The notes beneath the pieces were generated by a model that was not told the DNA's origin, made no database searches, and saw nothing but the letters and a program-made list of their open reading frames with translations. From Archangium violaceum (GTDB taxonomy: Bacteria > Myxococcota > Myxococcia > Myxococcales > Myxococcaceae), in contig NZ_CP069396.1 in the NCBI RefSeq assembly GCF_016887565.1, positions 12,196,001 to 12,260,000 on the forward strand: DNA of 64,000 nucleotides. The letters are read 5' to 3'. Of the stretch, positions 10,546-32,275 are shown in pieces. Both the position numbers and the translations under genes were made by a program. How positions within the stretch are numbered: position 1 is the first letter of the stretch; each line of letters begins with the position of its first letter.

Positions 10546-10574
10546 GCCCCTCCTCTTCCCCCGAGATTTCATTC

Positions 10575-13376
10575 ATGACGACCACCACCCTGCTCCGTGG
10601 CCGGGGCCTGCTGCTGGCACTGCTGGCGCTCACCGTCCTGCCACTGTCCGCGCTCGCCGCGGGCGAGAACTACGGCCGCGTCTCCGGCTACGTGTACGAC
10701 CCCACCGGCACCCCGCTGTCCGAGGTGCCCCTCACCATCAGCGGCCCCGCGCTCCAGCAGCCCATCTCCCGCACCAGCGGTGAGGACGGCCGCTTCGAGT
10801 TCGGCCAGCTGCCCCCGGGCGAGGGCTACTCCCTCGAGGTGAAGGTGGAGGGTTTCACCCCCATCAAGAAGACCGGCATCATCATCCGCCTGGGTCAGAC
10901 GACCCCCGTGGACGTGAAGCTGGAGGTGCTCACCGAGACGCAGGCGGTGGCCACCTATGAAATCGTCGAGAAGGTCAACCCCATCATCAACCCCGACTCG
11001 GCGCAGACGGGCGCCGTCGTCACCTCGGAGAAGGTGGCGTCCATCCCCGTCTTCACCCAGGTGCAGGCCATTCCGCAGCTGGTGGCTGGCGTGGGCCCGG
11101 GCAACGCCCCGAGCAGCCGCGGCGGTCTGTCGCGCTACGGCAAGTTCTACGTGGACGGCATGGACACCACGGACGTGTCCGACGGCTCCATCACCTCGCC
11201 GATGAACTTCTACGCGGTGGAGAACTTCGAGGTCATCACCGGCGGTCTGGACGCGCAGTACAACGCGCTGGGCATGGTGGAGAACGTCGTCACCAAGAGC
11301 GGTTCCAACAAGTTCACCTACGACGCCACCATCATCCTGTCGCCGGCCTGGAGCAACGCCAAGGCGAGCTCCGCCACCAACCAGACCCCCTCGACGGGCG
11401 GCTTCCTGCAGAGCAGCACCCCGCAGTCGGAGACCGACTTCTACTCGCCGATGCTGGCCTTCGGCGGTCCCATCATCAAGGACCGGCTGTGGTTCTACGT
11501 CAGCGGTCAGTGGAACATCAGCAACCAGGAGACGCCGCTCACCGTCAATGGCGTCCAGGAGAACCGCCCCAAGGACACCAACACCCGCATGGGCCGGCTC
11601 AAGCTCACCTGGCAGCCCACGGACAAGGACCGTCTGTCCGTGGCCTTCAGCATGGATGACAACGTCATCGGCAACAACTCCTCCCGGGCGACGACCTCGC
11701 TGGAGGCGGAGTCGCGCATCGATCGTGGCGGCACCTTCATCATCGCCAACTACGACCGCAACATCAGCCAGGACGTCCTCTTCCAGCTCCAGACGGGCGC
11801 CACCAACAAGCGCGCGTTCATCGGTCCGCAGAACGAGGACCTGAACGTCCCCGCGCACGTCGACCTGGGCAACAACTCCTTCCTCACGGGCTCCTGGGGC
11901 AACTACACCAACGAGAACAAGTGGCGCTTCCAGTTCGACCCCACCGTCCTCTTCAAGGCGGGCGCGCACCAGATGAAGGGCGGCCTGCAGCTGGGCTACC
12001 TGACGGGCCGCCTGCAGGTGGGCAACACCGGCAACGTGCGCTACTTCGACCGCAACGGCGTGTGCAACCCGGACGATGTGGCCGCTGGCGGCTGCGAGTC
12101 GAAGACCACCTACTACAACCTGGATGGCCAGCCGGGCTCGCTCACCACGAGCGCCTCGGTGGCGCAGCTCGGCGCCTTCGTCCAGGACCGCTGGACCGTC
12201 AACCGCTACCTGACGCTGGTGGCCGGTCTGCGCGCGGACGTGGGCCGGATGTACGCGGACGACAACCAGTTCGTCACCAACCTGGTGGGCATCGGTCCCC
12301 GCCTGTCGGCCACGTACGACATCACCGGCGACCGCAAGACGCTGCTCAAGGCGCACTACGGCCGCTCCAACGAGGTGGGTGATGTGTATGTCGCGCAGCA
12401 CGCCAACCCCGAGCCCATCCAGATGTCGGCCAAGGTCGTCAACGGCGCCTTCGTGGAGTGCACCCCGGACACGGTGCTGGATCCCAGCAACACCAACTGC
12501 ACCCGCGCCGGTGGCCTCGCCCGCCGCACCTTCGACAAGACGCACACGCCCCCCAGCGTGGACGAGCTGAGCCTGGGCCTGCACCGCGAAATCACCGAGG
12601 GCACCGTGCTGGGCCTGGACGTCACCTACCGCCGCTACAACAACCTGTGGGTCGACGAGGAGGTGAACCAGATCTGGGACGCCTCCGGTACGCGCGTGGT
12701 GGGCTACGTGGACCCCAGCAAGACCGGCTCGCAGGTGCTGGTGCACAACCCGGACGACGCCTGGCGTGACTACAAGGGCATGGACCTGTGGGTGCAGGGC
12801 CGGACCGGCGGGTGGGACCTGCTGGCCAGCTACACCCTGGGCTTCAACAACGGCACCGTGGACACCTACTTCGACGGCTACGGCGCCAACCCGCGCATGA
12901 AGTACCTGTTCGAGGGCGCGACGCCCGACGACATCCGCCACACCTTCAAGGGCTCGGTCAACTACACCACCAGCTTCGGCCTGGACTTCGGCATCCGCGC
13001 CCGCTACCTGACGGGCACGCCGCTGTGGATGAACCAGTCGGTGTCCTACCCCGACAGGACCACCCTGTACCGCTCGCCGCGCGGCACCGGCTTCTCCACC
13101 AACCGTGGCACGCCGAACTTCAACGACCCGACCACCATCTCCGAGCTGCGCAACCCGGACCAGTTCGTCATCGACGCCCAGGCGCGCTACGACATCGGCC
13201 GGCTGTTCCAGATGTCCAACAAGCTGGAGCTGACGCTCATGGTGGTGAACGCGCTGAACAACACCGACCCGACGTTCTATTACGACCGCTGGGCGCCCAC
13301 CAACAGCGACTACGGCCTGGTGTCCGGCCGCAGCCGCCCGCTGCAGGCCGAGCTGCTGCTGCGCTTCCGCAACTAG
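10575..13376 (+). CDS. Oar-like TonB-dependent outer-membrane receptor
   Basis: A 933-residue outer-membrane protein. A signal peptide (about 1-28) is followed by a carboxypeptidase-regulatory-like domain (GRVSGYVYDPTGTPLSEVPL, about 33-115), a plug region (about 120-270, ending in VENVVTKSGSNKFTYDAT), and a long beta-barrel ending in LLLRFRN. This order is that of the Oar/TonB-dependent family known from myxobacteria and Bacteroidetes. No canonical TonB box is obvious. It is encoded with the lipoprotein upstream and lies close to a divergent TonB-like gene. The transported substrate cannot be told from the sequence. A strong terminator follows. Confidence 0.93.
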   Translation: MTTTTLLRGRGLLLALLALTVLPLSALAAGENYGRVSGYVYDPTGTPLSEVPLTISGPALQQPISRTSGEDGRFEFGQLPPGEGYSLEVKVEGFTPIKKTGIIIRLGQTTPVDVKLEVLTETQAVATYEIVEKVNPIINPDSAQTGAVVTSEKVASIPVFTQVQAIPQLVAGVGPGNAPSSRGGLSRYGKFYVDGMDTTDVSDGSITSPMNFYAVENFEVITGGLDAQYNALGMVENVVTKSGSNKFTYDATIILSPAWSNAKASSATNQTPSTGGFLQSSTPQSETDFYSPMLAFGGPIIKDRLWFYVSGQWNISNQETPLTVNGVQENRPKDTNTRMGRLKLTWQPTDKDRLSVAFSMDDNVIGNNSSRATTSLEAESRIDRGGTFIIANYDRNISQDVLFQLQTGATNKRAFIGPQNEDLNVPAHVDLGNNSFLTGSWGNYTNENKWRFQFDPTVLFKAGAHQMKGGLQLGYLTGRLQVGNTGNVRYFDRNGVCNPDDVAAGGCESKTTYYNLDGQPGSLTTSASVAQLGAFVQDRWTVNRYLTLVAGLRADVGRMYADDNQFVTNLVGIGPRLSATYDITGDRKTLLKAHYGRSNEVGDVYVAQHANPEPIQMSAKVVNGAFVECTPDTVLDPSNTNCTRAGGLARRTFDKTHTPPSVDELSLGLHREITEGTVLGLDVTYRRYNNLWVDEEVNQIWDASGTRVVGYVDPSKTGSQVLVHNPDDAWRDYKGMDLWVQGRTGGWDLLASYTLGFNNGTVDTYFDGYGANPRMKYLFEGATPDDIRHTFKGSVNYTTSFGLDFGIRARYLTGTPLWMNQSVSYPDRTTLYRSPRGTGFSTNRGTPNFNDPTTISELRNPDQFVIDAQARYDIGRLFQMSNKLELTLMVVNALNNTDPTFYYDRWAPTNSDYGLVSGRSRPLQAELLLRFRN

Positions 13377-14747: not shown

Positions 14748-16250
14748 TTACCTGGGGGTGCTCCTGAATTGGGGACCCAGCAGCCGCCTCAGCGCTTCCT
14801 GCTCGTCCCAGGCCGGCTCCGGCACGGCGGGCTCCACCTCCACCCGGCGGGAGGCCAATGACAACCGGACGGCGGGGTCCCCCAGCAGGATGTAGTTGGC
14901 GAGATCCTGGCGCTGCATCCACAGCCGGGCCTTGTCCGCCGGAGTCACGGAGGACGGACGTCCATCCATGAGGTCCATCTGCTCCTGGTTGTAGAGCGTC
15001 GCCAGCTCGCTGCTCGCCTCGTTGAGGAACTGCAGCAAGGTGCTCAGGGCGACACCGGCGCGGCTCCCCTGGGCGAGCGCCCTCAGCAGCTCGATGAAGC
15101 GCGAGGTCGTCCGGCGGCCCCTGTCGTTGAAGCCGCAGGACCAGGCCAGGTCCACGTGCCCCATCACCGCCAACGGCCCGTTGGGGTTGGCCAGCGCGGC
15201 CTGGGGCAGCGCGGCGATGAAGGGCCGCTCCCCCTGCTGGGGCAACGCCTCGAGTCCCCTGCGTGCGTTCGGGTCGCTCGTGGGGAGCTGGCGCAGCCAG
15301 TGCGTGTAGCTGCTCCGCGAGGGCGTCCCCGCGCTGAAGCACGCGAAGCTGAACCAGACCCCTCCCGGGAGGAAGGGCCGCGACGCGAGCGCCTCCGCCG
15401 GCAGGAACCGCCCGTCCGGCAGCAGCAGCTCTCCCTGATGCGCGAGCCGCTCCTCGGGCTTGCCCCAGCCGCCCGAGGGCCGACCCCTGCCGTGGCTCAG
15501 CGTGAACAGCACGCCCGGCCCGGGCCGCTCCGCGTGGGACAGGAGCTCCTCGATGGACACGGCCCCCTCCCCTCCCAGCTCGAGGATGTCCGCCGCGGGG
15601 AAGTCGTCCAACTGCTGGCGCTCCCGGCAGGCCGCGACGCTCGGGGCGATCAGCATGTCGTGCCCCATCTCCGTCGCGGGGGTGCGGTCCCGCGAGGTAT
15701 AGAAGAGCATGCGCGCGCTCGCCTCTCGCGCGGCCTCGCCCTCCCACCGCAGCACCTTCTCGACGTAGGCCTCGTAGCCCGCGTCCGACGCGAAGGCCAG
15801 CCGCCCCACGAAGGCATCGGTGGTCAGCGCCTGCTGCAACTCCAGCGGCACCTGGTGCAGGTCCCCCAGCAGCAGCAGGTAGCGCGGGCGGTTCCTCTCG
15901 GACATCGTCTCGTCGCGGAAGACCTCCTTCTTCCATTCCGCGGCGAACGCGCCGTCCATCACGGACGGGACGCGGTAGAGCTCCACCGGCGCACCTCCCT
16001 GGGACGCCTGGCGCAGCCGCCGCAGCGGCTCGACGAGCGCCAGGAGCCGGTCGCCCTCGCGCCCCTCCGGAACCACCAGACCCCAACGCTGGGCGGGCAG
16101 GTCGTTGGGATCCTTCGTCGCGTCCCACAGGTCATCCGGCAGCTCGACGGCCTGGGGCCGTGGAGCGCGCTGGAGCGTCTCCATCTTCAATCCCTGGCCG
16201 GGTGCGGCCGGGCGTTCATCGGCTTGGGCGAGCAGCAGCTCGAGTGTCAT
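14748..16250 (-). CDS. C25/caspase-like cysteine protease
   Basis: A 500-residue protein of the caspase/gingipain fold. The catalytic pair is visible: His 253 in LFTLSHGRG and Cys 304 in WFSFACFSAGTPS, each at the end of a hydrophobic strand. The C-terminal stretch ANYILLGDPAVRLSLA is the GDP motif common in gingipain-like C25 peptidases. No signal peptide or membrane segment is visible, so it is probably cytosolic. The ATG at 16250 has a GGAGGGGG ribosome site. It is the second gene after a duplicated-domain protein (56 bases apart), expressed from an ECF-type promoter at 17118-17141. It could equally be called a CHAT-domain protease. Confidence 0.85.
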   Translation of the reverse strand: MTLELLLAQADERPAAPGQGLKMETLQRAPRPQAVELPDDLWDATKDPNDLPAQRWGLVVPEGREGDRLLALVEPLRRLRQASQGGAPVELYRVPSVMDGAFAAEWKKEVFRDETMSERNRPRYLLLLGDLHQVPLELQQALTTDAFVGRLAFASDAGYEAYVEKVLRWEGEAAREASARMLFYTSRDRTPATEMGHDMLIAPSVAACRERQQLDDFPAADILELGGEGAVSIEELLSHAERPGPGVLFTLSHGRGRPSGGWGKPEERLAHQGELLLPDGRFLPAEALASRPFLPGGVWFSFACFSAGTPSRSSYTHWLRQLPTSDPNARRGLEALPQQGERPFIAALPQAALANPNGPLAVMGHVDLAWSCGFNDRGRRTTSRFIELLRALAQGSRAGVALSTLLQFLNEASSELATLYNQEQMDLMDGRPSSVTPADKARLWMQRQDLANYILLGDPAVRLSLASRRVEVEPAVPEPAWDEQEALRRLLGPQFRSTPR

Positions 16251-16306: not shown

Positions 16307-17068
16307 CTACGCCGCGATCTGCTGCGTGCTCGTGCTGAGGGTGCTCACGCCGTTGGAGGGCAGAATCGAGCGCGCATCGAAAGCCTTGGGGAAGGCCGCG
16401 GCGACGTACTGCTGCAGGAAGCTCAGCGACGGCCAGTCGCAGAGCCCCACGTAGGTTCCGGTCGCCCGCATCCGGGCCACGAAACCATCGAGGTGCACGG
16501 CCACCTCGCCCCTGGCCGCGAAGACGAACAGGTGCTTGCCCGATTCCGGAACGTCGGTGCACACGCCCAGGGCCAGGAATTCCTCATGGCCGGGCAGCGG
16601 CATGATGAAGACCTTCCGCGCGGAGACGTACTGCGCGGGCCACGTGGGGCCGTCGGAGATGGGCACGGACATCACCGCCTCCCACAGCGAGGGACCCGCG
16701 CCTCCCGCGTAGGAAATCCTCCCCGCGTCGGTCGAACCCTTGGGCGGCGAGGTCTCCGAACCATCGAAGGGGTCGTCGGAGGTGTACCGCTTCACGAGGG
16801 GCCACGGTAGCGGCACCCGCTCGTAGAGCTCCACGTCGGCCCCGGACCGCTTCATCCGCTCCAGGAAGTCCCCGAGGCGCTCGCCCACCCGGCCCCTGGC
16901 CACGAAGAGCACCGTGTTGGACGGGTCGAACACGCCGAAGGCCACGAACTCGGCGGGGTTGGACAGCGGCATGAGGAAGACGCGCCGCGAGCGGTCCTCG
17001 ACCCCGCGCCAGTAGGGGTAATCCACGGAGAACTTGAGGTTGTAGAGGACCGGCTCCTGGTAGCTCAT
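16307..17068 (-). CDS. Protein of two tandem homologous domains, caspase partner
   Basis: A 253-residue protein that I do not recognise. It consists of two copies of one domain: residues about 19-95 (RRVFLMPLSNPAEFVAFGV, then RGRVGERLGDFLERM) and about 143-221 (RKVFIMPLPGHEEFLALGV, then RGEVAVHLDGFVARM). Each copy reads as beta-strands, a helix (DFLERM / GFVARM) and a terminal Leu/Trp-rich part. No signal peptide or catalytic residues are evident. AGGAG lies six bases before the ATG. It is the first gene of the unit that also encodes the caspase-like protease, so it may be its inhibitor, activator or substrate. Confidence 0.8.
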   Translation of the reverse strand: MSYQEPVLYNLKFSVDYPYWRGVEDRSRRVFLMPLSNPAEFVAFGVFDPSNTVLFVARGRVGERLGDFLERMKRSGADVELYERVPLPWPLVKRYTSDDPFDGSETSPPKGSTDAGRISYAGGAGPSLWEAVMSVPISDGPTWPAQYVSARKVFIMPLPGHEEFLALGVCTDVPESGKHLFVFAARGEVAVHLDGFVARMRATGTYVGLCDWPSLSFLQQYVAAAFPKAFDARSILPSNGVSTLSTSTQQIAA

Positions 17069-17117
17069 GGCTGACTCCTGTGCTGGGAAGGATGGAATCG
17101 CTCCACCCGTGCACAAG

Positions 17118-17141
17118 AACGGCCCCGGTCCGGTTTGTTAC
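17118..17141 (-). promoter_or_regulatory. Island ECF promoter P1 (duplicated-domain and caspase genes)
   Basis: Read on the minus strand: GGTAACAAACC, then CGTT, with exactly 15 bases between GTAAC and CGTT. Transcription would start near 17110, about 40 bases before the ATG at 17068. Confidence 0.75.
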
Positions 17142-17158
17142 CTCGCCTTCTTTTTTTC

Positions 17159-20098
17159 TCATTCGAAGAGCAGCACGCTGTCGAGCCACGTCGCTCCCCG
17201 GCCCGCGCGCAGCCACTGCACGCGCTCGTCACGCAGCGCGAGAGCCGGCGCCGTCCCCGAGCGGATGCGCTCGCGGACGGCGTTGAAGAAGGCCCCCGCC
17301 TCCAGGTCCGGAATCTCCACGGTCGCCGCGAGCACGCCGCGCGCGCCCGCCTCGATGAAGGAGGCCGGGAGGCTGAAAGGCGTCTCGAACGTGTAGGCCG
17401 TGTGCGCGGCGTGGCAGGCCACGAGCACCACGAAGGGCGCCCCCCGCAGGGAGGCGGAGCGCACCCGCGGCACGCTCAGCTCCGGTCCGTCCTGCTCGGG
17501 CGCCAGCAACAGGTAGGAGGTGTTGGAGTAGCCGTCGACGATGCCGTGGGCCACCAGGTCGATCTCCGTGGCATCCCTCATGGCGGAGAGGACCCGGGAC
17601 GGAGTCGCCTCGGCGCCCGAGAGCGTGACGCGCTGTTCCTCGGAACCGAAGACGGGAGTCCAGGCATTGAGCCGCTTGAGAGAGGCCTCGGTTGGCAGCT
17701 CCGCTTCCACGTCGTAGACGACGAGGTGGACCGAGGGCCCCACACGCGGGGCATGGGAAGGCGAGGTGCGCGTCAGATAGCTCCAGGCCATTTCCGGCGG
17801 GAGCAGCCCCGCCCGGCCATGGAGCGGAGGCCGGGCCAGCACCTCCACCCGAGGGCACGTGCGCAGGGCCGCCAGGAGCTTCTCCGGCACGAACCCGTCG
17901 AGCCGCTGGGGCAGCGGCTGGCGCCGGGACTCGTCGAAGTGGCCGAGCAGCTCCCCGGAGGCGCCCCGCGCCAGCAGCAGCGTCCGCTCCGAGTCCGCGG
18001 TGACCGCCAGCAGGCACTTCCCTGGCAGCTCCATGCCTCGCTCGCGCGCGAACAGCTCCAGTGCTTCCGGGAAGGCACCCCGCCGGCCCGCGTCATGCAG
18101 AAGCGAGGTGTAGCTGTAGGCGCGCGCCCGCCGCGCCCCCGGATCCTCCTCGAGACCCGGAGCCGAGGCCTCCTCGATGGCGCGCTGGAGCAGGGCACGC
18201 CCCTTCGCCGCGTCGCGCTCGATGTAGAAGCGCCCCCGCATGTGCGTGGCGACCGCGCGCTCGCCCGCGCTCAACGCGGGCCCGGCCGCCTCCAGCGCCT
18301 GGTTCAGGTGGGCCTCGTCCCCGGGCTCGCTCTTCAGCCGCGAGATGTCCGTCAGGGAGTAGGCGCCGCTGTACAGGAGCGGAAGACCCGTGGCCAACGC
18401 GGAATCGATCTCCCGCCGGGCCTCGTCCACCCGCAGTTCCCGGAACGCGATGCTCGCGAGATCCTGATGGGCACGGCGCCGCATGTCCGGATCCTCCCGG
18501 CCCCGCTCGAGATACTCCCCCAGGTAGGCACGCGTCAGCGCCGCGTCGTTCACCACCCGGGCGATCTGCGAGAGGTTCCACAGCAGATCATTCTCCAGCT
18601 CCCACTCGTTGTTCTCGCGAGCCGCCTTCCAGCTCCGCTCCGTATGGGTGCGCGCGGCGTCGACCATGCGGCGCAGGATGTAGAGGTTGGACAGCTCGCG
18701 ATCGATGCAGAGGCAGCGGTACTCGACGCCGCGCGCCGTGCAGAGGCCACGCGCGGCGAGGAGGGTCCGGGTGGCCTGGGTCCAGCGCCCGGCGGCGCTC
18801 TCGGCCCTGGCGCGCTCCTGCGCCGCGAGGAGCTGGAACCAGCGGTCCCCCGTGGCGGCGGCCTTCGCCTCGTAGAGCTCCAGGTGACGGGCGGTGGCGC
18901 CCATCTGGATGAGCGCGCCCAGGAGGATGTCATCTTCCCGCGACTGGAGGAGCGCCGCGAGGAAGCGCTCCCGCTCCTCCGAAGAGAGGCGCTTGTCGAT
19001 CAGCTCCGAATACTGGCGGGCGAGCGGGGCGCGGCGCGAGAAGTCCGCCTCCGCGCTCCGCTGCACGTAGCGCTCGAGCACATCGCCGCCCTCCCGCGCA
19101 TCCAGCTCCCGAGCCACGGGCAGCAGCGCGAGCACCCGCTCCCGGTCCGGGGCGGACCGGACGGCGTCGTAGAAGAAGAGACGCGAGATGGGCACCTCAC
19201 CGAAGCCCCTGGGCGGCACGCCCGGAGTGGCCTCGCGGAGGGCCCGGCCCGCCTCCCGGGTGGCCATCCACCGGGTGCGGCGCTCGAACACGGCGCGCTG
19301 GAGGGCCTCGGCCTTCCGCGCGGCCTCATCGGACCAGCCGGGCTCCTTCAGGGCGGCGACCTCGGTGAAGGCCCGGGCCGCCAGCAGCGGCAACCCCAGC
19401 TCGCGCAGCGCCAGGCCCCGGTTCCACAGCGCCTGCGGATGACGAGGGTGCGTCTCCAGCACGCCGTCCACCAGCCGGAGGGCCTCCTTGGGCTGGCCCT
19501 TGAGCAGCAGCGCCACCGCGCGGTCGTTGTCCAGCTCCGGCGAGTGCTCCAGCTTCTCCAGCTTCCGGAGCGCCTGATCCGCCAGACCCTTGTCGTCGCG
19601 AACCAGGTAGGCCGCCACGAGGCCGTGGGGATCCTCCCGCTCGAGCCAGGCCATGGCCTCGAGCGGCAGCTCCTCCGGGTTGCCCGTTCCGCCCATCATC
19701 TTCGGAGCCGGGGGACGATAGACGTCGGCGCCGGGGTGGCCGAGACGCGCCTCCAGCAGGCGCTCGGTGCGCTGCGCCAGCCACACGTCCTGACGGGGCT
19801 TGGAGGGCAGCAGGAAGCGCACCGCCACCAGCACCAGCAGGGCCGCGGCGAGGGCGGCCGGCACCAGCACGACGGACCGCTTCCAGAAGGCGACGGGCGG
19901 GACGCGCGATAACGGAGCCGGCGCGCGCTCCTCGGCGTTCTCCGCGTGGCGGTGGGCCAGCAGCTTGAGCTGCAGGAGCTCCGTCACCTCGCGCTGGCAG
20001 CGGGCGCAGTCGGGAAGGTGCTGGCGGAACGCCTCGGCGTGTTCGGGAGCCAGCTCCCCGTCCACGAACAGCTCGACGTTGTCACAGAGGCTGTCCAT
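17159..20098 (-). CDS. Membrane anti-sigma factor fused to TPR and CHAT protease domains
   Basis: A 979-residue fusion. Residues about 1-40 carry the zinc anti-sigma signature (His 27, Cys 31, Cys 34 in HLPDCARC). One membrane segment follows (about 72-96), then a long helical region of TPR-like repeats (about 150-680), and a C-terminal CHAT domain with an intact dyad: His 851 (DLVAHGIVDG) and Cys 895 (VLVACHAAHTAYT). The N-terminus should bind the ECF sigma factor on the cytoplasmic side and the rest should lie in the periplasm. Its ATG overlaps the sigma stop by one base (TGATG). Ordinary anti-sigma factors are about 200 residues; the protease extension is unusual. Confidence 0.92.
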   Translation of the reverse strand: MDSLCDNVELFVDGELAPEHAEAFRQHLPDCARCQREVTELLQLKLLAHRHAENAEERAPAPLSRVPPVAFWKRSVVLVPAALAAALLVLVAVRFLLPSKPRQDVWLAQRTERLLEARLGHPGADVYRPPAPKMMGGTGNPEELPLEAMAWLEREDPHGLVAAYLVRDDKGLADQALRKLEKLEHSPELDNDRAVALLLKGQPKEALRLVDGVLETHPRHPQALWNRGLALRELGLPLLAARAFTEVAALKEPGWSDEAARKAEALQRAVFERRTRWMATREAGRALREATPGVPPRGFGEVPISRLFFYDAVRSAPDRERVLALLPVARELDAREGGDVLERYVQRSAEADFSRRAPLARQYSELIDKRLSSEERERFLAALLQSREDDILLGALIQMGATARHLELYEAKAAATGDRWFQLLAAQERARAESAAGRWTQATRTLLAARGLCTARGVEYRCLCIDRELSNLYILRRMVDAARTHTERSWKAARENNEWELENDLLWNLSQIARVVNDAALTRAYLGEYLERGREDPDMRRRAHQDLASIAFRELRVDEARREIDSALATGLPLLYSGAYSLTDISRLKSEPGDEAHLNQALEAAGPALSAGERAVATHMRGRFYIERDAAKGRALLQRAIEEASAPGLEEDPGARRARAYSYTSLLHDAGRRGAFPEALELFARERGMELPGKCLLAVTADSERTLLLARGASGELLGHFDESRRQPLPQRLDGFVPEKLLAALRTCPRVEVLARPPLHGRAGLLPPEMAWSYLTRTSPSHAPRVGPSVHLVVYDVEAELPTEASLKRLNAWTPVFGSEEQRVTLSGAEATPSRVLSAMRDATEIDLVAHGIVDGYSNTSYLLLAPEQDGPELSVPRVRSASLRGAPFVVLVACHAAHTAYTFETPFSLPASFIEAGARGVLAATVEIPDLEAGAFFNAVRERIRSGTAPALALRDERVQWLRAGRGATWLDSVLLFE

Positions 20099-20637
20099 CA
20101 GTTCACTCCGGATTGGATGTGGCGCAGGAGGAACTCGCGCAATCTGGCGCGGGCATCGTGCAGCCGCTTGGAGACCGTGCCCACCGGGATGCCGAGGGAA
20201 CGAGCGATGTCCTGGTATTTCTTCCCGGACGCGTGCAGCTCGAACGTGGCGCGAATCTTCGGGCTCAGCGTCTGGAGGGCCTCGGAGAACTGCGCGTCCG
20301 TGAGCGTGTCATAGACGGGCCGGGCGTCGGGCTCATGCTCCACCACCACCTCGTTGCTCAGGTGGGGATCCTTCGCGCCCTGGGCCTGCACCCGCCGCCT
20401 GCGGCACTGGTCGTAGAAGAGATGGGTCAGGGTGGTGACCAACCAGGCCTCGCAGCTGCGCTCGTTGGGGAGCGCCTCCAACTGGCCGAAGGTTTGGATG
20501 AATCGTAGCAGGGCGTCCTGCACGAGGTCCTCCGCGTCGGTGGCATTGCGGCAGAGGTTGTGGGCCTGGGCAAGCAGCCAGGCTCGATACCGCGTGGCGA
20601 ACTCCCCGGCTCGTTGCTCGCTCTTCGCCGTGTCCAT
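20098..20637 (-). CDS. ECF sigma factor, likely master of the CHAT/caspase island
   Basis: A 179-residue sigma factor with regions 2 (NATDAEDLVQDALLRFIQTF, about 32-51) and 4 (YQDIARSLGIPVGTVSKRLH, about 145-165) and nothing between them but a short linker, the ECF pattern. It should direct RNA polymerase to the seven GTAAC-N15-CGT(C/T) promoters found around it, one of which precedes this gene. It is coupled to the anti-sigma gene by a one-base overlap. The ATG at 20637 has AAGGGGG just upstream. An in-frame ATG at 20856 would add a 73-residue Pro/Arg-rich extension; because the predicted transcript starts near 20904 that longer form is possible. Confidence 0.9.
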   Translation of the reverse strand: MDTAKSEQRAGEFATRYRAWLLAQAHNLCRNATDAEDLVQDALLRFIQTFGQLEALPNERSCEAWLVTTLTHLFYDQCRRRRVQAQGAKDPHLSNEVVVEHEPDARPVYDTLTDAQFSEALQTLSPKIRATFELHASGKKYQDIARSLGIPVGTVSKRLHDARARLREFLLRHIQSGVN

Positions 20638-20911
20638 TGGCCCCCTTCGTCGCCCCGGGCCCTGCTCACGGGGACGAACGGGCAGCTTTATGACACGGGC
20701 CCCACCTGTTGAGGAGGGTCCTTCCGGGTCCGTCTGGCCCCACGACTGGGGGACGTCCGGTTGCCGGGCCTCACCGGGGGTGCGCGCCGCGTTCATCGAG
20801 GGTGCTTCGAGGGCCTCGGGATCGCATGACCGTGGAGGAGCCAGGAGCCGCATCAATCTTCTCGTTCGAAGGAGCCAGGGGGAGGACCGCGTGCCCTCCC
20901 CGCTCCGGCAA

Positions 20912-20935
20912 GACGCGAAGAGAGGGATTTGTTAC
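20912..20935 (-). promoter_or_regulatory. Island ECF promoter P2 (sigma/anti-sigma operon)
   Basis: On the minus strand GGTAACAAA then CGTC, with 15 bases between GTAAC and CGTC. It faces the sigma factor gene, which implies autoregulation. Together with P3 it forms an inverted repeat with arms around GTTACCCGCG and CGCGGGTAAC. Confidence 0.75.
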
Positions 20936-20962
20936 CCGCGCCGCCGACGAGGGATGCCGCGG

Positions 20963-21251: not shown

Positions 21252-24200
21252 ATGAGCACAGCACACCTGGGGGAAGTGAGCCCACGACCCGAGTCCGGCC
21301 AACACGAGGGACCTGAGGCCGGCCCCTACGAGTTGGTGCTGGAACTGTCGCGCGCGGACAGCCCCGAGGATGCCCACGACTTCCACGCTGGGTCGCGGGA
21401 CTACCTGGTGCGGGTGGGAGAAGGCGGCGTGAAGCGCGCCAGCCTTCCCTGGGCGGAGCTGCTGGGAGACCTGGCGGCGCTGACCGGGGGAAAGCCAGAT
21501 GAGGAGATGGCCCGGCGGCTCGGGGAGCGGATGAGACGCTTCCTGGACACGCTGGACTGGGGCGGGCACGAGGAGGCGCTGGAGAGGGCACGTGGCAAGG
21601 GAGGGCAGCTGCGGCTGGTGGTGCGCTCGTCGGCGGCCGAGCTGTACTCGCTGCCCTGGGAGCTGGTGACGCTCGAGGGCAGCGGACGGCACCTGGCGGA
21701 CGTGCCGGGGTGCACGCTGCGCTACGAGTGGCCCGGGCAGCGGGGGGAAGAAGCGCGCAGGGGGGCGGCGCGCGAGGGACGGGTGCTCCTGGCCTGGTCG
21801 GAGGCAGGTGGCGCCGTACCGGAAGACGCTCACCTGCTGGCACTCATGAAGGCCAGCCAGGAGGGAGGCTTCGCCTTCGACTCACGGCGGGACGTGCTGC
21901 CGAGGGTGTCGCTGGAGAGTCTGGACAAGAAGCTGAGGGAAGCCCAGCAGGCGCAGCAGCCGGTGTCCGTGCTGCACGTGCTCTGCCACGGAGCACCCCT
22001 GGAGACGTCGGGGCCGGGCCTCCATGGATTGGCGTGGAACGCCTCCGAGGTCCGGGGCGGTACCAAGGAGCTGGTGGACGGAGTGGCACTGGGCGCGGTG
22101 CTGGCGCCCTACGCGGACACCCTGCGCATGGTGGTGCTGTGCGCCTGCCATGGCGGAGATGGCGGCAGGGTGGCCGGCTACCTGGGCAGCGTCGCGCAGG
22201 AGCTGCACCGCGCCGGCATCGACATGGTGGTGGCCTCCCGGCTGCCCTTGTCGACCGTGGGCTCGGTGCTGCTGGCCGAGACGCTGTACCAGAAGCTGCT
22301 GGTGGACTCCCGCTCACTGGAGGAGGCGCTGGGGGCGGTGCGGCGCCGGCTGAGGGTGGAAGCCAGGAGCTTCGATTGGGCCTCGCTACAACTGTACGCG
22401 CGCCGGGAGGGCGAGGCGGATTTGAGGCCGGTGGTGTTGCGGCCCTACCGCGGCCTGCTGGCCTTCGGGCCGAAGGACCGGCGCTTCTTCTTCGGCCGAA
22501 GCCGCCTGGAGGCGGAGCTGCTGGAGCGGGTGGCGCAGGCGACGAGAGGGCAGAGGCCGCGCTTCCAGGTGGTGGCGGGAGCCTCGGGAGCGGGCAAGTC
22601 CTCGGTGGTGATGGCGGGGCTGGTGCCGCAACTGCCGCGAGAGGAGTGGGACTGCCTGGTGGTGAGGCCCGGTGAGCTGGTGCGTACCGAGCCTGAGGTG
22701 GCGGGGAAGCGCTCCGTGGCACTGAGGGAGCTGCAACACCGGCTGCACCGGGTATGGGACCTCGAGCCACTGCCGACCGGCGAGGGAGCCAGCCAACAGG
22801 AGGTGGTGGAGGAGGTGCGGCGGCTGAGGAAGGCGCGGCCGGAGCGCAAGCTGTTGTTGGTGGTGGACCAGATGGAGGAGCTGTTCACCCAGCTCGGAAG
22901 CGAGGAGCGCCAGGCATTGCTGAGGGCGGTATGGGCGCTGGGGAAGGAACCGGAGCTGGGATGCGTGGTGATCGCGACGGTGCGGGTGGACCACTTCGAG
23001 CGCTGCGGAGAGGTGATGCTGGATGAACAGACGCGGCTGGACACCGTGGTGTACGCCGAGGAGCACCGTCTGTTCGTGCCCCAGATGGGGCCGGAGGAGC
23101 TGGCCGAGGCGATAGAGAAGCCGGCGCGCGTGGTGGGGTTGGAGCTGGAAACGGGGCTGGTGGAGAGGTTGCGCGGTGACGTGGGGCAGGAACCGGGGGC
23201 GCTGCCGCTGCTGGCGCATGCACTGGACCTGCTGTGGCAGAGGAGGGAGGGCAGGAGGCTGACGCACCGGGCCTACGAGGAGTTGGGGGGCGTGACCGGA
23301 GGCCTGACCCAGACGGCGGATCGGCTGTACGAGGAGCTGGGCGAAGGCGAGCGCCAGCAGATACGGCGGCTGCTGGTGCGACTGGTGGCCGTGAAGGACA
23401 TGGGCAGCCCCAGAGCCCGGGAACGGGTGTGGGTGGAAGGGATGAGGCCGCGGGACGGAGAGGAACGGGCCGCCTTCGAGTCGATGCTGGAGAAGCTGGT
23501 GACGAGCCGGCTGCTGGTGAAGGGAGGCACCCCGGAAGGCGGAGAAGGGAAACACGGGGCGTGGGTGCAGCTGGCGCACGAAACGCTGCTGCGGAAGTGG
23601 AAGCTGCTGGCGAGGTGGGTGGAGGAGGACTGGGAGCGGGAGCAGCAGCTCCGGGAGTTGGAGACATGGGCGGAGGACTGGGAGGAGAACCAACGCAGTG
23701 CGGATGGAGGAATCTCCTACCTGCTGACGGGGGACAGGCTGGGTTACGCCAGGAGCCTCCGGGAGAAGCACGGGGGAGAGCTCTCGCCGCGCAGCCAGCA
23801 GTTGCTGGAAATGTCCGAGGCCCTGCGGGAGCGCCAGCAGGAGGAAGAGCAGCAGAAGCAGCGGGCCTTGTTGGAGGCTCGGGCACGTGCGACGCGCTTC
23901 TTCCGCAGTAGCTTCGTGGTGACGGCCGTGCTGCTGGTGGTGGCGATCGCCGCGGTGGCCATCGTCTCTCACCTGCGGCAGCGGGAAAGAGAGCAGCGGG
24001 TGCTCTCGCAGAACACGGCCCGGCTCCTGCTGGCGGAGCAATACCGCGGCCAGGACCCGGCCCGGAGCCTGCTCTTCCTGCGTGAGGTGGGCAACGCCGA
24101 GAAGAGTCAGAAGTGGCTCACGACGGCCATGGATGTCCTTCAGCGGCCCATGGCCGGAGCCGTGCTGCGGGGCCACGGGGGTTGGGTGCTTTCGGCCGTC

Positions 24201-26327
24201 TTCAGTCCGGATGGGCACCAGGTGGTGACTGCCTCCGCGGACACGACGGCACGCTTGTGGAGCGCGCGAGGAGTGCCTCTGGCGAGTTTGGAAGGCCATG
24301 AAAGCTATGTGCTCTCGGCTGTCTTCAGTCCGGATGGGCAGCGGGTGGTGACTGCCTCCGCGGACACGACGGCGCGTGTGTGGAGCGCGCAAGGCGAGCT
24401 GCTGGCGAAGTTGGAAGGCCATGGCAACCATGTGAACTCGGCTGTCTTCAGTCCGGATGGGCAGCAGGTGGTGACTGCCTCCTCGGACGGGACAGCGCGC
24501 GTGTGGAGCTCGCGAGGCGCGCAGCTGGCGGTGCTGGCGGGCCACGAAGCAAGGGTGCTGACAGCCGCATTCAGTCCGGATGGGCAACGGGTGGTGACCG
24601 CCTCCGAAGACGGGACGGCGCGCGTGTGGAGCATCCAGGGAAAGACGCTGGCGGTGCTGAAGGGTCACGAAGCAAGGGTGCTGTCGGCGGACTTCAGCTC
24701 GGATGGGCAACGGGTGGTGACGGCCTCCGGGGACAGGACGGCGCGCGTGTGGACCGCGAACGGAAAGACGCTCGCGGTACTGGGGAAGCACCAGGGCCAG
24801 GTGGTGTCAGCCTCCTTCAGCCCGGACGGGGAATGGGTGGTCACGGCCTCCGATGAGGGAATGGTCCGGGTGTGGCGTGTCCAGGAGGGAGCGCTGTTCG
24901 CGAAGCTGGAGGGCCACGGCGGAGTGGTATCCAAGGCTGCCTTCAGCCCGGACGGAACGCGAGTGTTGACGGCCTCGATGGATGGAATGGGGAGGGTATG
25001 GACCCTGGATGGGAGGCTGTTGGCGACGCTGCCGGGCCACGGCGGGGGCGTGTATTCCGCCCACTTCAGCCCGGATGGCAACCGGGTGGTGACCGCCTCG
25101 AAGGACGGCACCGCTCGGGTGTGGAGTGCCGAGGGAGCGCTGTCGGATGAGCTGGAGGGCCACCACGGCTGGGTGATGAAGGCCCACTTCAGCCCGGATG
25201 GACAGCGGGTGGTGACGGCCTCCGCGGACGGCACCGCTCGGGTGTGGAGTGCCGAGGGAGAGCCGTTGGCGAAGCTCGAGGGTCACACGAGCCGCGTCAT
25301 GAACGCCGTATTCAGCCCGGACGGGACGCGGGTGGTGACGGCCGCCCTGGACGGCACCTCCCGGGTGTGGAGTGCGGAGGGAGAGCCGCTGGCGAAGCTC
25401 GAAGGTCACACGGCTGCATTCAGCCCGGATGGGGCCCGGATCGTCACGGCCTCCAGGAAGACGGCGCGGGTGTGGAGCACGGAGGGTGAGCCATTGGCCG
25501 TCCTGGAGGGCCACGCGGGTGAAGTGAAATGGGCCGCGTTCAGTCCGGACGGGACCCGGGTCGTCACCGCGTCCGAGGACGGCACCGCACGGGTGTGGAG
25601 CGCGAAGGGTGAGCCGTTGGCCCTCCTGGAGGGCCATGGGTCTTCCGTGTGGACAGCGGCCTTCAGTCCGGATGGGACACGGGTGGTCACGGCGTCCATG
25701 GATGGCACCGCCCGGGTGTGGAGCCTGGAAGGAGCGCCGATGGTCCTGCTGCAGGGACACAAGAGCGGTGTGGTGTCGGCCGCTTTCAGCTCGGACGGGA
25801 CGCGGGTGGTGACCGCGTCCCTGGATGGCACCGCGCGGGTATGGGGCGCGAAGGGTGAGTTGCTGGCGGCGCTGGACGGCCACGGAGATGCGGTGTTGTC
25901 GGCCGCCTTCAGCCCGGATGGAGAGCGGGTGGTGACGGCCTCGTGGGACAAGACCGCGCGGGTCTGGTCGGCGCAGGGGGCGCTGCTGGCCAGACTGGAG
26001 GGGCACGGAGCAGGTCTGTTGTGGGCCGCCTTCAGCCCGGATGGGGAGCGGGTGGTGACGTCCTCGTCGGACGGGGCCGCGCGGGTATGGCCTGTCAGCT
26101 TCAAGCTCGCGATGGAACGCCTGGAAAACGCGACCTACGACTGTCTGACGAGCGAGGAACGGCAGACGTACCTGGATGAAACACCCGAGGAGGCATTGGC
26201 TGGCTTCGAACGCAGCCAACGAGCACTCGAGCAGCGGCGCTTGAGCCAGAGCGCCAGGCCACCTCACCGGGCCCAGGGACTCACCGCGCTCGGGGCACCA
26301 CGGCCCACCGTCCGTGGCGCTCCGTGA
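21252..26327 (+). CDS. CHAT - STAND NTPase - membrane segment - WD40 giant protein (copy 1)
   Basis: A 1691-residue protein. Residues about 1-400 hold a CHAT protease domain with His 246 (VLHVLCHGAP) and Cys 299 (LCACHGGDGG). Residues about 410-850 form a STAND-type NTPase (nSTAND1) with Walker A GASGAGKSS from 443 and Walker B LLLVVDQMEELFTQ. A single membrane segment (about 885-906) precedes 16 WD40 repeats of 41 residues (about 966-1616), most ending in TARVWS. Repeat 11 is shortened. STAND proteins switch on by oligomerising after ligand binding, so this is likely a sensor that activates its protease. The ATG at 21252 follows GAGGGGG and fits the P4 transcript. Confidence 0.93.
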   Translation: MSTAHLGEVSPRPESGQHEGPEAGPYELVLELSRADSPEDAHDFHAGSRDYLVRVGEGGVKRASLPWAELLGDLAALTGGKPDEEMARRLGERMRRFLDTLDWGGHEEALERARGKGGQLRLVVRSSAAELYSLPWELVTLEGSGRHLADVPGCTLRYEWPGQRGEEARRGAAREGRVLLAWSEAGGAVPEDAHLLALMKASQEGGFAFDSRRDVLPRVSLESLDKKLREAQQAQQPVSVLHVLCHGAPLETSGPGLHGLAWNASEVRGGTKELVDGVALGAVLAPYADTLRMVVLCACHGGDGGRVAGYLGSVAQELHRAGIDMVVASRLPLSTVGSVLLAETLYQKLLVDSRSLEEALGAVRRRLRVEARSFDWASLQLYARREGEADLRPVVLRPYRGLLAFGPKDRRFFFGRSRLEAELLERVAQATRGQRPRFQVVAGASGAGKSSVVMAGLVPQLPREEWDCLVVRPGELVRTEPEVAGKRSVALRELQHRLHRVWDLEPLPTGEGASQQEVVEEVRRLRKARPERKLLLVVDQMEELFTQLGSEERQALLRAVWALGKEPELGCVVIATVRVDHFERCGEVMLDEQTRLDTVVYAEEHRLFVPQMGPEELAEAIEKPARVVGLELETGLVERLRGDVGQEPGALPLLAHALDLLWQRREGRRLTHRAYEELGGVTGGLTQTADRLYEELGEGERQQIRRLLVRLVAVKDMGSPRARERVWVEGMRPRDGEERAAFESMLEKLVTSRLLVKGGTPEGGEGKHGAWVQLAHETLLRKWKLLARWVEEDWEREQQLRELETWAEDWEENQRSADGGISYLLTGDRLGYARSLREKHGGELSPRSQQLLEMSEALRERQQEEEQQKQRALLEARARATRFFRSSFVVTAVLLVVAIAAVAIVSHLRQREREQRVLSQNTARLLLAEQYRGQDPARSLLFLREVGNAEKSQKWLTTAMDVLQRPMAGAVLRGHGGWVLSAVFSPDGHQVVTASADTTARLWSARGVPLASLEGHESYVLSAVFSPDGQRVVTASADTTARVWSAQGELLAKLEGHGNHVNSAVFSPDGQQVVTASSDGTARVWSSRGAQLAVLAGHEARVLTAAFSPDGQRVVTASEDGTARVWSIQGKTLAVLKGHEARVLSADFSSDGQRVVTASGDRTARVWTANGKTLAVLGKHQGQVVSASFSPDGEWVVTASDEGMVRVWRVQEGALFAKLEGHGGVVSKAAFSPDGTRVLTASMDGMGRVWTLDGRLLATLPGHGGGVYSAHFSPDGNRVVTASKDGTARVWSAEGALSDELEGHHGWVMKAHFSPDGQRVVTASADGTARVWSAEGEPLAKLEGHTSRVMNAVFSPDGTRVVTAALDGTSRVWSAEGEPLAKLEGHTAAFSPDGARIVTASRKTARVWSTEGEPLAVLEGHAGEVKWAAFSPDGTRVVTASEDGTARVWSAKGEPLALLEGHGSSVWTAAFSPDGTRVVTASMDGTARVWSLEGAPMVLLQGHKSGVVSAAFSSDGTRVVTASLDGTARVWGAKGELLAALDGHGDAVLSAAFSPDGERVVTASWDKTARVWSAQGALLARLEGHGAGLLWAAFSPDGERVVTSSSDGAARVWPVSFKLAMERLENATYDCLTSEERQTYLDETPEEALAGFERSQRALEQRRLSQSARPPHRAQGLTALGAPRPTVRGAP
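24150..26098 (+). repeat. WD40 coding repeat array, 16 units of about 123 bases
   Basis: In-frame repeats each encoding FSPDG...VVTAS.DGTARVW..EG..LA.LEGH. Units are highly alike at the base level, so recombination between them is likely. Unit 11 lacks five residues before the FSPDG core and two after it. Confidence 0.85.
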
Positions 26328-26346
26328 CACACGTCGGAAACGCGGG

Positions 26347-26370
26347 GTAACAATCCTGAAGTCCGGCGTC
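26347..26370 (+). promoter_or_regulatory. Island ECF promoter P5 (tail-anchored protein)
   Basis: GGTAACAAT then CGTC with exactly 15 bases between GTAAC and CGTC. Predicted start near 26378, 60 bases before the ATG at 26438. Confidence 0.7.
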
Positions 26371-26437: not shown

Positions 26438-27112
26438 ATGATTCAGCAGAACCGAAGCGAGCCCATCACCCGCCAGATCCCGACGCCCGACATGTCCCAG
26501 CTCACGCGGATGCTGCTCGAAGCGGCGGGCAAGGACTCGCGGGTTCGTGAAGCCATCAACCCGGTGCTCGCCTGGAAGGTCCAGCCGTTGGATCCAGCGA
26601 GTCTGAAGGCATACAACCGGCTCCGCCGGCCAGGGGCCCTGCGCAAGTTCCTCGGCTTGCAGGAGGGAGCCGCCACCCTCATGACCATGAACTACATGCG
26701 GGCGATGGATGCCCTCATCCAACCAGGGCTCGTCGACAAGCTCCAAGGATACCTGGCCGACCCCAACCAGCTCGCCGAGACGGTGCGGAAGGGGCTGGCC
26801 CGGTTGGGAGAGCGGTTCGATGGCGACCTGCTGGTCCAGTTCGAGACGGAGGCCAGCCAGGCGCCGGCGTTTGGCCGCGAGGTCACCACCGCGATGAAGT
26901 CGCTCGAGGAGCTGCTCGAGGCGGTTCAGCGGGAGCCCGCCATCCAGGCGCTGGCGGGTGTGGTCCCGATGGTCTGCGCCACATTGGATTCCCCGGAGAA
27001 CAACCTCGGCTTCTTCGGTGCCTCCATTTGTACCGCCACGACCTTCGAGGAGTTCCTGGTCTGCCTGGCGATCGCGGCGGTCATCATCGTCATCATCCTC
27101 ATCTTCTTCTGA
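26438..27112 (+). CDS. Tail-anchored membrane protein of the island, unknown function
   Basis: A 224-residue protein with no relative that I recognise. It is mostly helical and charged, then ends in a hydrophobic anchor (CLAIAAVIIVIILIFF, about 205-224) with nothing after it, so the bulk should face the cytoplasm. Two Cys (PMVCATL and ASICTATT) sit shortly before the anchor. GAGGGGGAA precedes the ATG. It stands alone between the two giant CHAT-STAND genes and has its own ECF promoter, P5. I infer a membrane effector or protease substrate of the island. Confidence 0.75.
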   Translation: MIQQNRSEPITRQIPTPDMSQLTRMLLEAAGKDSRVREAINPVLAWKVQPLDPASLKAYNRLRRPGALRKFLGLQEGAATLMTMNYMRAMDALIQPGLVDKLQGYLADPNQLAETVRKGLARLGERFDGDLLVQFETEASQAPAFGREVTTAMKSLEELLEAVQREPAIQALAGVVPMVCATLDSPENNLGFFGASICTATTFEEFLVCLAIAAVIIVIILIFF

Positions 27113-27164
27113 GCCATCCCGGAGCGACGGCCCGGCCAGGGAAGACCCACGAAAACAGAGGCGG

Positions 27165-32242: not shown

Positions 32243-32275
32243 ACCTGGCGATGAAATGAGCGGGAAAAAGGGCAG

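What the first reader, a model, noticed from the sequence alone, without database searches (positions are those of the whole stretch)
17159..20098. Anti-sigma factor fused to TPR repeats and a CHAT protease
One 979-residue chain has a zinc anti-sigma motif (HLPDCARC), a membrane segment, TPR-like repeats and a CHAT domain with His 851 and Cys 895. Anti-sigma factors are normally small and are destroyed by separate site-1/site-2 proteases. Here a protease-like domain is built into the anti-sigma factor, so signal-driven self-cleavage could free the sigma factor. The topology implies that the CHAT domain lies outside the cytoplasm if the anti-sigma part is inside.
Basis: partly seen in the sequence, partly recalled or inferred. 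Interest (0 to 1): 0.8.

Follow-up and report, generated by a model that had tools for sequence, protein, structure and literature searches.

The report
Anti-sigma switch beside caspase-like immunity genes
This gene encodes a membrane protein that probably holds a gene-switching sigma factor inside the cell while carrying a caspase-like domain outside; one relative (DdvA) has a solved structure, and what looks new is that the switch appears to control neighbouring caspase-like immunity genes.

Summary
In detail: a 979-aa minus-strand frame with a zinc anti-sigma motif, one membrane segment, TPR-like helices and a CHAT domain with H851/C895. The architecture is known: it is a relative of Myxococcus xanthus DdvA, a "transmembrane anti-sigma factor" (8ROT; E 2e-178 end to end, 41% identity). 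The H/C pair is invariant in 46 of 46 distinct family proteins. In a named set, 46 of 46 zinc-bearing copies have an ECF sigma gene just upstream, 0 of 25 intact zinc-less copies do. Charge bias puts CHAT outside (45 of 46). Self-cleavage is untested.

The context looks new. The operon continues with an unassigned protein and a C25-type peptidase. A promoter-like motif, GGTAACAA-N13-CGTY, occurs 8 times in the 13.2-Mb genome, 7 of them here, before the sigma gene, the C25 pair and two CHAT-nSTAND1 genes. Of 25 examined loci with the C25 gene, 22 adjoin a CHAT effector (14 SAVED-CHAT, 12 of these with a cyclase shown, as in CBASS); of 12 without C25, none. DdvA itself sits between SAVED-CHAT/cyclase genes and Cmr-type CRISPR genes. 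I read this as a sigma switch for caspase-like immunity.

The parts
20101..20856 (-). ECF sigma factor gene (open frame; the true start is probably further downstream)
   Evidence: Sigma70_r2 E 8.7e-12 and Sigma70_r4_2 E 4.3e-12; TGATG overlap with the next gene
17159..20098 (-). DdvA-type transmembrane anti-sigma factor with TPR-CHAT ectodomain, 979 aa
19994..20077 (-). zinc anti-sigma domain, residues 8-35 (C5 just before it; H27-x3-C31-x2-C34)
   Evidence: zf-HC2 E 1.1e-5; motif in 35 of 35 rows with an N-terminus
19820..19876 (-). single membrane segment, about residues 75-93
   Evidence: hydropathy; charge bias in 46 relatives
17204..17698 (-). CHAT domain, residues 801-965; H851 codon 17546-17548, C895 codon 17414-17416
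   Evidence: PF12770 E 1.5e-15; H851 and C895 in 46 of 46
16307..17116 (-). P3: conserved protein of unknown family with two similar halves (likely ATG at 17068)
   Evidence: no Pfam or NCBIfam hit for this copy; 1 of 20 family members has a weak Pfam hit, E 0.019; conserved gene order; two-fold model, pLDDT 74.7
14748..16250 (-). P4: Peptidase_C25-like (gingipain/caspase-type) protease; no signal peptide seen by eye
   Evidence: PF01364 E 7.4e-7; H253 and C304 invariant in 13 of 13
20912..20936 (-). promoter-like motif GGTAACAA-N13-CGTC of the sigma operon
17118..17142 (-). promoter-like motif (CGTT form) upstream of P3-P4
   Evidence: also before P3 in L042, L043, L050, L051 and, with one base longer spacing, L040
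20962..20986 (+). promoter-like motif; in relative L042 the copy at the same place precedes a C-type-lectin gene
   Evidence: L042
21162..21186 (+). promoter-like motif before CHAT-nSTAND1-WD40 no. 1
21252..26327 (+). CHAT-nSTAND1-WD40 protein no. 1 (putative effector)
   Evidence: nSTAND1 E 4e-96, WD40 E 5e-161; CHAT E 9.4e-17 in the genome scan; PADLOC SAVED_CHAT model, CHAT part only, E 2.4e-36
26346..26370 (+). promoter-like motif before the 224-aa gene
26438..27112 (+). 224-aa protein of unknown family with a hydrophobic C-terminal tail (seen by eye)
   Evidence: no family hit
27164..27188 (+). promoter-like motif before CHAT-nSTAND1-WD40 no. 2
27251..32242 (+). CHAT-nSTAND1 protein no. 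2 (putative effector; WD40-like repeats by eye)
   Evidence: similarity to no. 1 in CHAT and nSTAND1; CHAT E 8.1e-15 in the genome scan
32275..32299 (+). promoter-like motif (CGTT form) before a small lipoprotein-like gene
32361..32864 (+). small secreted/lipoprotein-like protein (by eye), 167 aa, no Pfam hit; a similar gene follows the motif in L170

Best explanation
This is a DdvA-type sigma/anti-sigma switch that arms caspase-like immunity. The N-terminal zinc domain holds the ECF sigma factor, encoded just upstream, at the inner membrane. One membrane helix leads to a large periplasmic TPR-CHAT domain that acts as the sensing/protease part. When a signal inactivates the anti-sigma factor (step inferred, most likely by regulated proteolysis), the free sigma factor transcribes from GGTAACAA-N13-CGTY promoters. 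It thereby raises its own operon, the P3/C25-protease pair and the neighbouring CHAT effectors (CHAT-nSTAND1-WD40 here; SAVED-CHAT, often with CBASS genes, in relatives), giving a feed-forward induction of cytoplasmic caspase-like effectors. Shown here: gene content, residue conservation, predicted topology, motif sharing, association with CHAT effectors. Known for the relative DdvA: it keeps DdvS inactive, and PddvS needs DdvS. Inferred: that the motif is this sigma factor's promoter, the signal, the proteolytic step, and the immune role.
For: DdvA homology over the full length. DdvS becomes active when DdvA is inactivated, and PddvS requires DdvS (PMC4374960, passages). Sigma gene directly upstream in 46 of 46 zinc-bearing copies and 0 of 25 intact zinc-less ones; 14 copies cut at a contig end were set aside. 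Topology. Motif: 5 exact CGTC copies in the window against 0 in 100 shuffles; CGTY form 8 in the genome, 7 here; 27 in 7 genomes, 23 of them at the sigma locus, against 3 for the reversed pattern. ddvS has GTAACATTCCAGATGACCTGCGTT 55 bases before its start. CHAT effectors adjoin 17 of 19 C25-bearing loci and 0 of 12 loci without C25, and 5 of 6 further C25-bearing loci fetched as a test.
Against: A looser motif was found at only 20 of 46 tested starts in 15 loci (132 of 4600 random windows, 2.9%), and at no tested start in five loci (G071, G079, G081, G109, G120), so either the promoter diverges or the link is not universal; G068 has no exact hit genome-wide. Two C25-bearing loci in the first set (G095:C43, G111) and one in the test set (G082:C4) have no CHAT effector in the stretch read. 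No SMODS cyclase hit lies in this window. C25 genes of this family also occur away from DdvA-like genes; five of the six such stretches read show no CHAT effector. A Myxococcus xanthus genome (strain AM003, G145) has no DdvA copy above 37% identity. The loci are related by descent, so the counts are not independent. No experiment shows defence, proteolysis or the signal.
Confidence: 0.65

Rival explanations
1. One reading: the fused CHAT domain cuts its own chain on a signal and so frees the sigma factor.
For: H851/C895 invariant in 46 of 46; same chain; low-confidence linkers at 53-84 and 96-100 in the model; the TPR-CHAT protease Csx29 cleaves a sigma-factor inhibitor in type III-E CRISPR (PMC10028731, passages).
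Against: CHAT is predicted outside and the zinc domain inside, so one cut outside would leave the zinc domain on the membrane stub and need a second protease (inference). DdvA in 8ROT is matched from 100 to 991. Zinc-less paralogues keep the same CHAT.
Confidence: 0.2
2. The ectodomain is mainly a sensor; release uses ordinary site-1/site-2 proteolysis, and CHAT cuts another periplasmic substrate or controls exposure of the site.
For: Single-pass zinc anti-sigma layout with sigma overlap; helical-repeat ectodomain suited to binding partners; CHAT conservation also in copies without an anti-sigma domain.
Against: No site-1/site-2 protease or substrate was sought here.
Confidence: 0.3
3. Release comes from inside: the cytoplasmic C25 protease P4, perhaps activated by a CHAT effector, cuts P3 or the cytoplasmic part of the anti-sigma factor.
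For: P4 His and Cys invariant in 13 of 13; P4 shares the operon and the P3-P4 pair has its own motif; C25-bearing loci are the ones linked to CHAT effectors. Recalled, not read: a SAVED-CHAT-started protease cascade ending in a sigma factor in type III-B CRISPR of Haliangium.
Against: P4 relatives at E<=1e-8 were found only in the window's own family among 195 phylum genomes, so no sequence link to that cascade was seen. Cytoplasmic place of P4 judged by eye. No substrate shown.
Confidence: 0.3
4. The neighbourhood is a coincidence of defence islands; the sigma pair serves an unrelated envelope or developmental response.
For: Examined copies without the C25 gene show no such link (0 of 12). 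The conserved outside target, a secreted-looking 339-aa protein, is not an obvious defence gene.
Against: Shared rare motif upstream of sigma, P3 and CHAT effectors in several genera; 22 of 25 C25-bearing loci with a CHAT effector, on several branches of the tree.
Confidence: 0.1

Closest known systems
DdvA (anti-sigma of DdvS), Myxococcus xanthus; PDB 8ROT, 8RW5, 8RLZ
   Same: Same order of parts end to end, zinc motif, CHAT H and C, sigma gene upstream, P3-like and C25-like genes downstream
   Different: 41% identical over the aligned part; DdvA adjoins SAVED-CHAT/cyclase and Cmr-type CRISPR genes, whereas the window copy adjoins CHAT-nSTAND1 genes
Csx29-Csx30-CASP-sigma of type III-E CRISPR (Craspase)
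   Same: TPR-CHAT protease and a sigma-factor inhibitor in one pathway; TPR-CHAT chains match the model with Z up to 22.2 (PMC10028731, passages)
   Different: There protease and inhibitor are separate proteins, the protease switched on by RNA; here they are one membrane protein
ECF54 sigma factors with CHAT proteins in their gene neighbourhood
   Same: Proteolytic control of an ECF sigma factor proposed because of neighbouring CHAT (and other protease) genes (PMC8999054, passages)
   Different: [quoted passage not shown] here the CHAT domain is on the anti-sigma factor. Whether this sigma belongs to ECF54 was not tested
ECF sigma genes in TRADD-N/EACC2-caspase neighbourhoods
   Same: ECF sigma factor coupled to caspase-domain conflict systems (PMC8195603, passages)
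   Different: Different adaptor and caspase domains; no membrane CHAT anti-sigma factor mentioned in the passages seen
SAVED-CHAT / type III-B protease cascade with a sigma factor (recalled; PDB 8TL0 seen)
   Same: SAVED-CHAT effector beside a sigma factor and a second caspase-like protease
   Different: A zinc membrane anti-sigma factor with an external CHAT; the paper was not held, so not compared in detail
RseA-type anti-sigma factors cleaved by site-1/site-2 proteases
   Same: Single-pass membrane anti-sigma factor with an external part (established knowledge)
   Different: Ectodomain of about 880 residues carrying a protease-like domain
Sigma-70-linked metacaspase (C14) operons of M. xanthus
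   Same: Caspase-like gene in a predicted operon with a sigma-factor gene (PMC3501461, section on operons)
   Different: C14 family rather than CHAT/C25; no anti-sigma fusion reported in that section

Membership tests
DdvA-type transmembrane anti-sigma factors | End-to-end similarity to DdvA: zinc domain, membrane segment, TPR, CHAT | tested here: met
   phmmer E 1.7e-178 over 3-979; Z 46.1, rmsd 3.9, 865 residues
DdvA-type transmembrane anti-sigma factors | Cognate ECF sigma gene directly upstream | tested here: met
   46 of 46 zinc-bearing relatives
DdvA-type transmembrane anti-sigma factors | Inhibits its sigma factor | not testable with these tools
   reported for DdvA/DdvS (PMC4374960, passages)
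Zinc anti-sigma (zf-HC2) domain | C/H...H-x3-C-x2-C, score above the Pfam cut-off | tested here: met
   25.9 bits against cut-off 22.2; 35 of 35 rows with an N-terminus
CHAT (caspase-type) peptidases | CHAT fold with His/Cys pair | tested here: met
   57.8 bits against cut-off 24; H and C 46 of 46; fold matches Csx29, separase and SAVED-CHAT
CHAT (caspase-type) peptidases | Proteolytic activity | not testable with these tools
   no assay
CBASS | CD-NTase beside the effector in this window | tested here: not met
   the genome's two SMODS-domain hits lie at 11.95 and 12.57 Mb, outside the window; cyclases are present in relatives
Craspase / type III-E CRISPR | Cas7-11 partner | not tested
   no search made; only the CHAT fold resemblance
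ECF54 sigma group | Membership of the sigma factor in that group | not tested
   no ECF group models at hand

The most novel reading that the evidence does not exclude
A two-input immune sigma switch: the external TPR-CHAT part senses damage at the envelope, while inside, a nucleotide- or STAND-activated CHAT effector activates the C25 protease, which cuts P3 or the same anti-sigma factor from the cytoplasmic side. Both routes free one sigma factor, which then multiplies the whole caspase-like set (C25, CHAT-nSTAND1 or SAVED-CHAT/CBASS). In the window's lineage the nucleotide-sensing SAVED-CHAT was replaced by CHAT-nSTAND1-WD40 while the switch was kept.
Probability: 0.25. Interest if true: 0.9.

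Novelty: new variant of a known kind. Interest (0 to 1): 0.7.

Why it matters
As a protein it is a new member of a known family (DdvA). What would matter is the link: anti-sigma factors of this family that travel with a C25 protease mostly adjoin CHAT effectors, often with CBASS genes, and DdvA itself adjoins Cmr-type CRISPR genes. That would give DdvA, whose triggering signal was described as unknown in the 2015 paper seen here (passages), a testable role. It would also add a membrane sigma switch to the protease-to-sigma signalling known from type III-E CRISPR, and would show that expression of CBASS-type immunity can be placed under an envelope-facing anti-sigma factor.

Tried and rejected
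Gasdermin for P3: considered because caspase-like genes surround it; no useful family hit and only weak fold matches (TM about 0.2 by query length; Spt16 middle domain first), so P3 stays unassigned. Novel architecture: dropped. CBASS membership of the window itself: not claimed. Viral collection: 2 pattern stretches, no relative. PADLOC on P0001, P3, P4 at E<=0.1: nothing. Motif with one mismatch genome-wide: 15 such hits against 15 control hits, so only exact matches were used there. Disulfides between invariant or nearly invariant C453, C462, C695 and C748 as a sign of a periplasmic place: coordinates not available, untested. Distribution of the anti-sigma family beyond the order: the phylum search failed and was not repeated. 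In the order, 66 of the 67 genomes with a match are in the window's family and one (G008) in another. The species-wide scan kept 79 loci of 151 relatives, named Myxococcus, Corallococcus, Pyxidicoccus, Citreicoccus, Hyalangium, Archangium or Myxococcaceae MAGs. Apparently shortened sigma-linked copies near zinc-less ones in L031, L032 and L035: not resolved. C25 genes without a DdvA-like neighbour: six stretches read, a CHAT effector in one, G043; in G000 a CHAT gene lies just outside the stretch read. Literature on zf-HC2 with CHAT, Myxococcus with CHAT domain, DdvA and SAVED-CHAT was searched in the held library only; nothing describing this link was listed, which does not show that it is unpublished; no search was made for sigma control of CBASS by name. 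Seen: passages of PMC10028731, PMC8999054, PMC8195603, PMC4374960, PMC8406250 (not used) and PMC3501461, plus one section of PMC3501461; other papers as search listings only.
Full report
Observation. The frame 17159..20098 is a real gene on the minus strand, 979 aa. It has a zf-HC2 zinc domain at 8-35 (above cut-off), a CHAT domain at 801-965 (above cut-off) and a weaker TPR match; H851, C895, the zinc ligands and a hydrophobic stretch from residue 75 are present. The upstream gene on the same strand is an ECF sigma factor whose stop overlaps the start as TGATG.

Relatives. A search of 145 genomes of the order found matches at E<=1e-20 in 67, itself included: 66 in the window's family and one (G008) in another; about five candidates per genome were scored. 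The window's genome holds one member. The species-wide scan found 151 relatives and kept 79 loci, all named as myxobacteria of the Myxococcus/Archangium group. Contig length identifies G044 as Archangium lansinium, which the search lists in the same genus as the window's genome, so the window is probably from Archangium (inference).

Conservation. In 46 distinct proteins from L001-L059, H851, G852 and C895 never change; the zinc ligands H27/C31/C34 are kept in all 35 that have an N-terminus; the other 11 rows are 8 zinc-less paralogues and 3 copies whose start is cut at or near a contig end (L020, L021, L038). In the named set (85 rows from L060-L138), 46 of 46 zinc-bearing copies have an ECF sigma gene directly upstream on the same strand and 0 of 25 intact zinc-less copies do; 14 rows cut by a contig end were set aside. 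An HG and a small-residue-Cys motif lie in the expected segments in 85 of 85 (loose patterns). So the zinc domain goes with the sigma gene, while CHAT is kept regardless.

Topology. Around the membrane segment the 46 zinc-bearing copies carry on average 4.4 K/R on the N-side and 1.5 on the C-side; N exceeds C in 45, C exceeds N in none. This predicts zinc domain inside, TPR-CHAT outside. In 34 zinc-less rows the bias is weaker (21 against 4), and in some of them the start is unsure or cut.

Known family. The profile finds PDB 8ROT/8RW5, a 991-aa "CHAT domain-containing protein" (E 5e-285), and 8RLZ, "Antisigma factor DdvA"; phmmer with the single protein gives E 1.7e-178 over 3-979. The model matches 8ROT, titled [quoted passage not shown], at Z 46.1, rmsd 3.9 over 865 residues, 41% identity; next come TPR-CHAT/Csx29 chains (up to 22.2), separase (up to 18.5), SAVED-CHAT (16.4) and gingipain (16.2). 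The architecture is therefore known. DdvA is the anti-sigma factor of DdvS in M. xanthus; PddvS requires DdvS, and the external signal was unknown (PMC4374960, passages).

Operon. Downstream lie P3 (no family; two similar halves) and P4 (Peptidase_C25-like). The order sigma, anti-sigma, P3, P4 recurs in many but not all relatives. In P4, H253 and C304 are invariant in 13 of 13. P4 relatives at E<=1e-8 were found in 41 of 195 phylum genomes, all in the window's family, also away from DdvA-like genes. Six such separate stretches were read: one (G043) has a CHAT effector, five do not.

Shared promoter-like motif. GGTAACAA-N13-CGTC occurs five times in the window, never in 100 shuffles. With CGTY there are 8 exact matches in the 13.2-Mb genome, 7 of them in 15 kb here: before the sigma operon, before P3-P4, twice before the first CHAT-nSTAND1-WD40 gene, before the 224-aa gene, before the second CHAT-nSTAND1 gene and before a small lipoprotein-like gene. 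The eighth precedes a secreted-looking 339-aa protein, and the same target is conserved in G045. In seven genomes there are 27 matches against 3 for the reversed pattern; 23 of the 27 lie at the sigma locus; G068 has none and G104 only 1 of 3 there. Around 46 starts in 15 C25-bearing loci (G000 and G045 not among them) a looser form was found at 20, against 132 of 4600 random windows; in five loci it was found at no tested start. ddvS has GTAACATTCCAGATGACCTGCGTT 55 bases before its start. That this is the sigma factor's promoter is inferred.

Neighbouring effectors. In 19 sigma/anti-sigma loci with P4, 10 adjoin a SAVED-CHAT gene with a cyclase and either E1-E2 (6) or TRIP13 (4), 7 adjoin CHAT-nSTAND1, and 2 (G095:C43, G111) have neither in the stretch read; of 12 loci without P4 (G083, which has a weak P3, among them), none has either (similarity at E<=1e-8 to queries whose families were checked, so most single assignments rest on similarity, not on Pfam). 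Six further P4-bearing loci were then fetched as a test: five adjoin a CHAT effector (SAVED-CHAT by Pfam and PADLOC in G117, G044, G076 at 6.83 Mb and G072:C25; CHAT alone on the opposite strand in G095:C103), one (G082:C4) does not. In total 22 of 25; of the 14 SAVED-CHAT loci 12 have a cyclase shown (10; G117; G076 at 6.83 Mb). Not every family locus was examined; three short contigs with P4 (G061, G115, G121) were left out of this count.

DdvA itself. One test locus (G117) encodes a protein 100% identical to DdvA over the 503 residues compared. Its order is cyclase, SAVED-CHAT, sigma (DdvS), DdvA, short P3-like, C25 peptidase, a second cyclase-like gene, ThiF/E2-like, JAB-like, then RAMP, Cas10/Cmr2 and Cmr3 genes. 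So the best studied member of the family sits between CBASS-type genes and Cmr genes of the type III-B kind. Another genome, M. xanthus strain AM003 (G145), has no copy above 37% identity to the DdvA stretch, so DdvA is not in every strain held.

Tree. In a tree of 37 family proteins, midpoint-rooted, P4-bearing loci occur on several branches, including the DdvA branch; six of the seven CHAT-nSTAND1 loci, the window's among them, group with support 1.0, and the seventh (G081) falls next to them beside G083, which lacks P4; SAVED-CHAT loci surround this group (support for that nesting was not printed). This suggests a change of effector with the switch kept.

Mechanism. I commit to a sigma switch held by a membrane zinc anti-sigma factor with an external TPR-CHAT part, whose release raises its own operon, the C25 protease and CHAT effectors. 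Which protease frees the sigma factor is open: own CHAT, site-1/site-2 proteases, or C25 from inside. The first is weakened by the predicted sides of the membrane, by the DdvA structure spanning 100-991 and by the zinc-less copies.

Novelty. The protein alone is a new member of a known family. The combination with a C25 protease and a motif-linked CHAT effector set is, as far as the held library was searched, a new variant of protease-to-sigma signalling known from CRISPR type III-E (PMC10028731, passages). Related ideas in print: proteolytic control of ECF54 sigma factors, proposed from neighbouring CHAT and other protease genes (PMC8999054, passages), ECF sigma genes near caspase systems (PMC8195603, passages) and sigma-linked metacaspase operons of M. 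xanthus (PMC3501461, section). The type III-B SAVED-CHAT cascade is recalled, not read.

Noticed in passing
26438..27112 +: A 224-aa protein of no known family with a strongly hydrophobic C-terminal tail lies between the two CHAT-nSTAND1 genes and has its own copy of the motif; it could be a substrate or membrane effector.
   Followed up: partly
L139 475..1494 - and L172 1002..2021 -: The only exact motif copies outside the sigma locus in G000 and G045 precede orthologous secreted-looking 339-aa proteins, a conserved outside target of unknown function.
   Followed up: partly
L031-L037, L039: Zinc-less TPR-CHAT paralogues keep the H/C pair and mostly a membrane segment; in L031, L032 and L035 a sigma-linked relative nearby ends early.
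   Followed up: partly
L252 8796..10244 -: The window's genome has a second C25 gene of the P4 family without a DdvA-like neighbour; a CHAT gene lies about 9 kb away in the genome.
   Followed up: no
L168 6105..8181 +: TRIP13-like ATPase and SAVED-HNH nuclease genes follow the SAVED-CHAT and cyclase genes, so one locus carries two SAVED effectors.
   Followed up: no
L243 2251..10883 +: Beside DdvA: cyclase-like, ThiF/E2-like and JAB-like genes directly followed by RAMP, Cas10/Cmr2 and Cmr3 genes.
   Followed up: partly
10467..13376 +: Large outer-membrane-receptor-like protein gene near the locus, judged by eye only.
   Followed up: no
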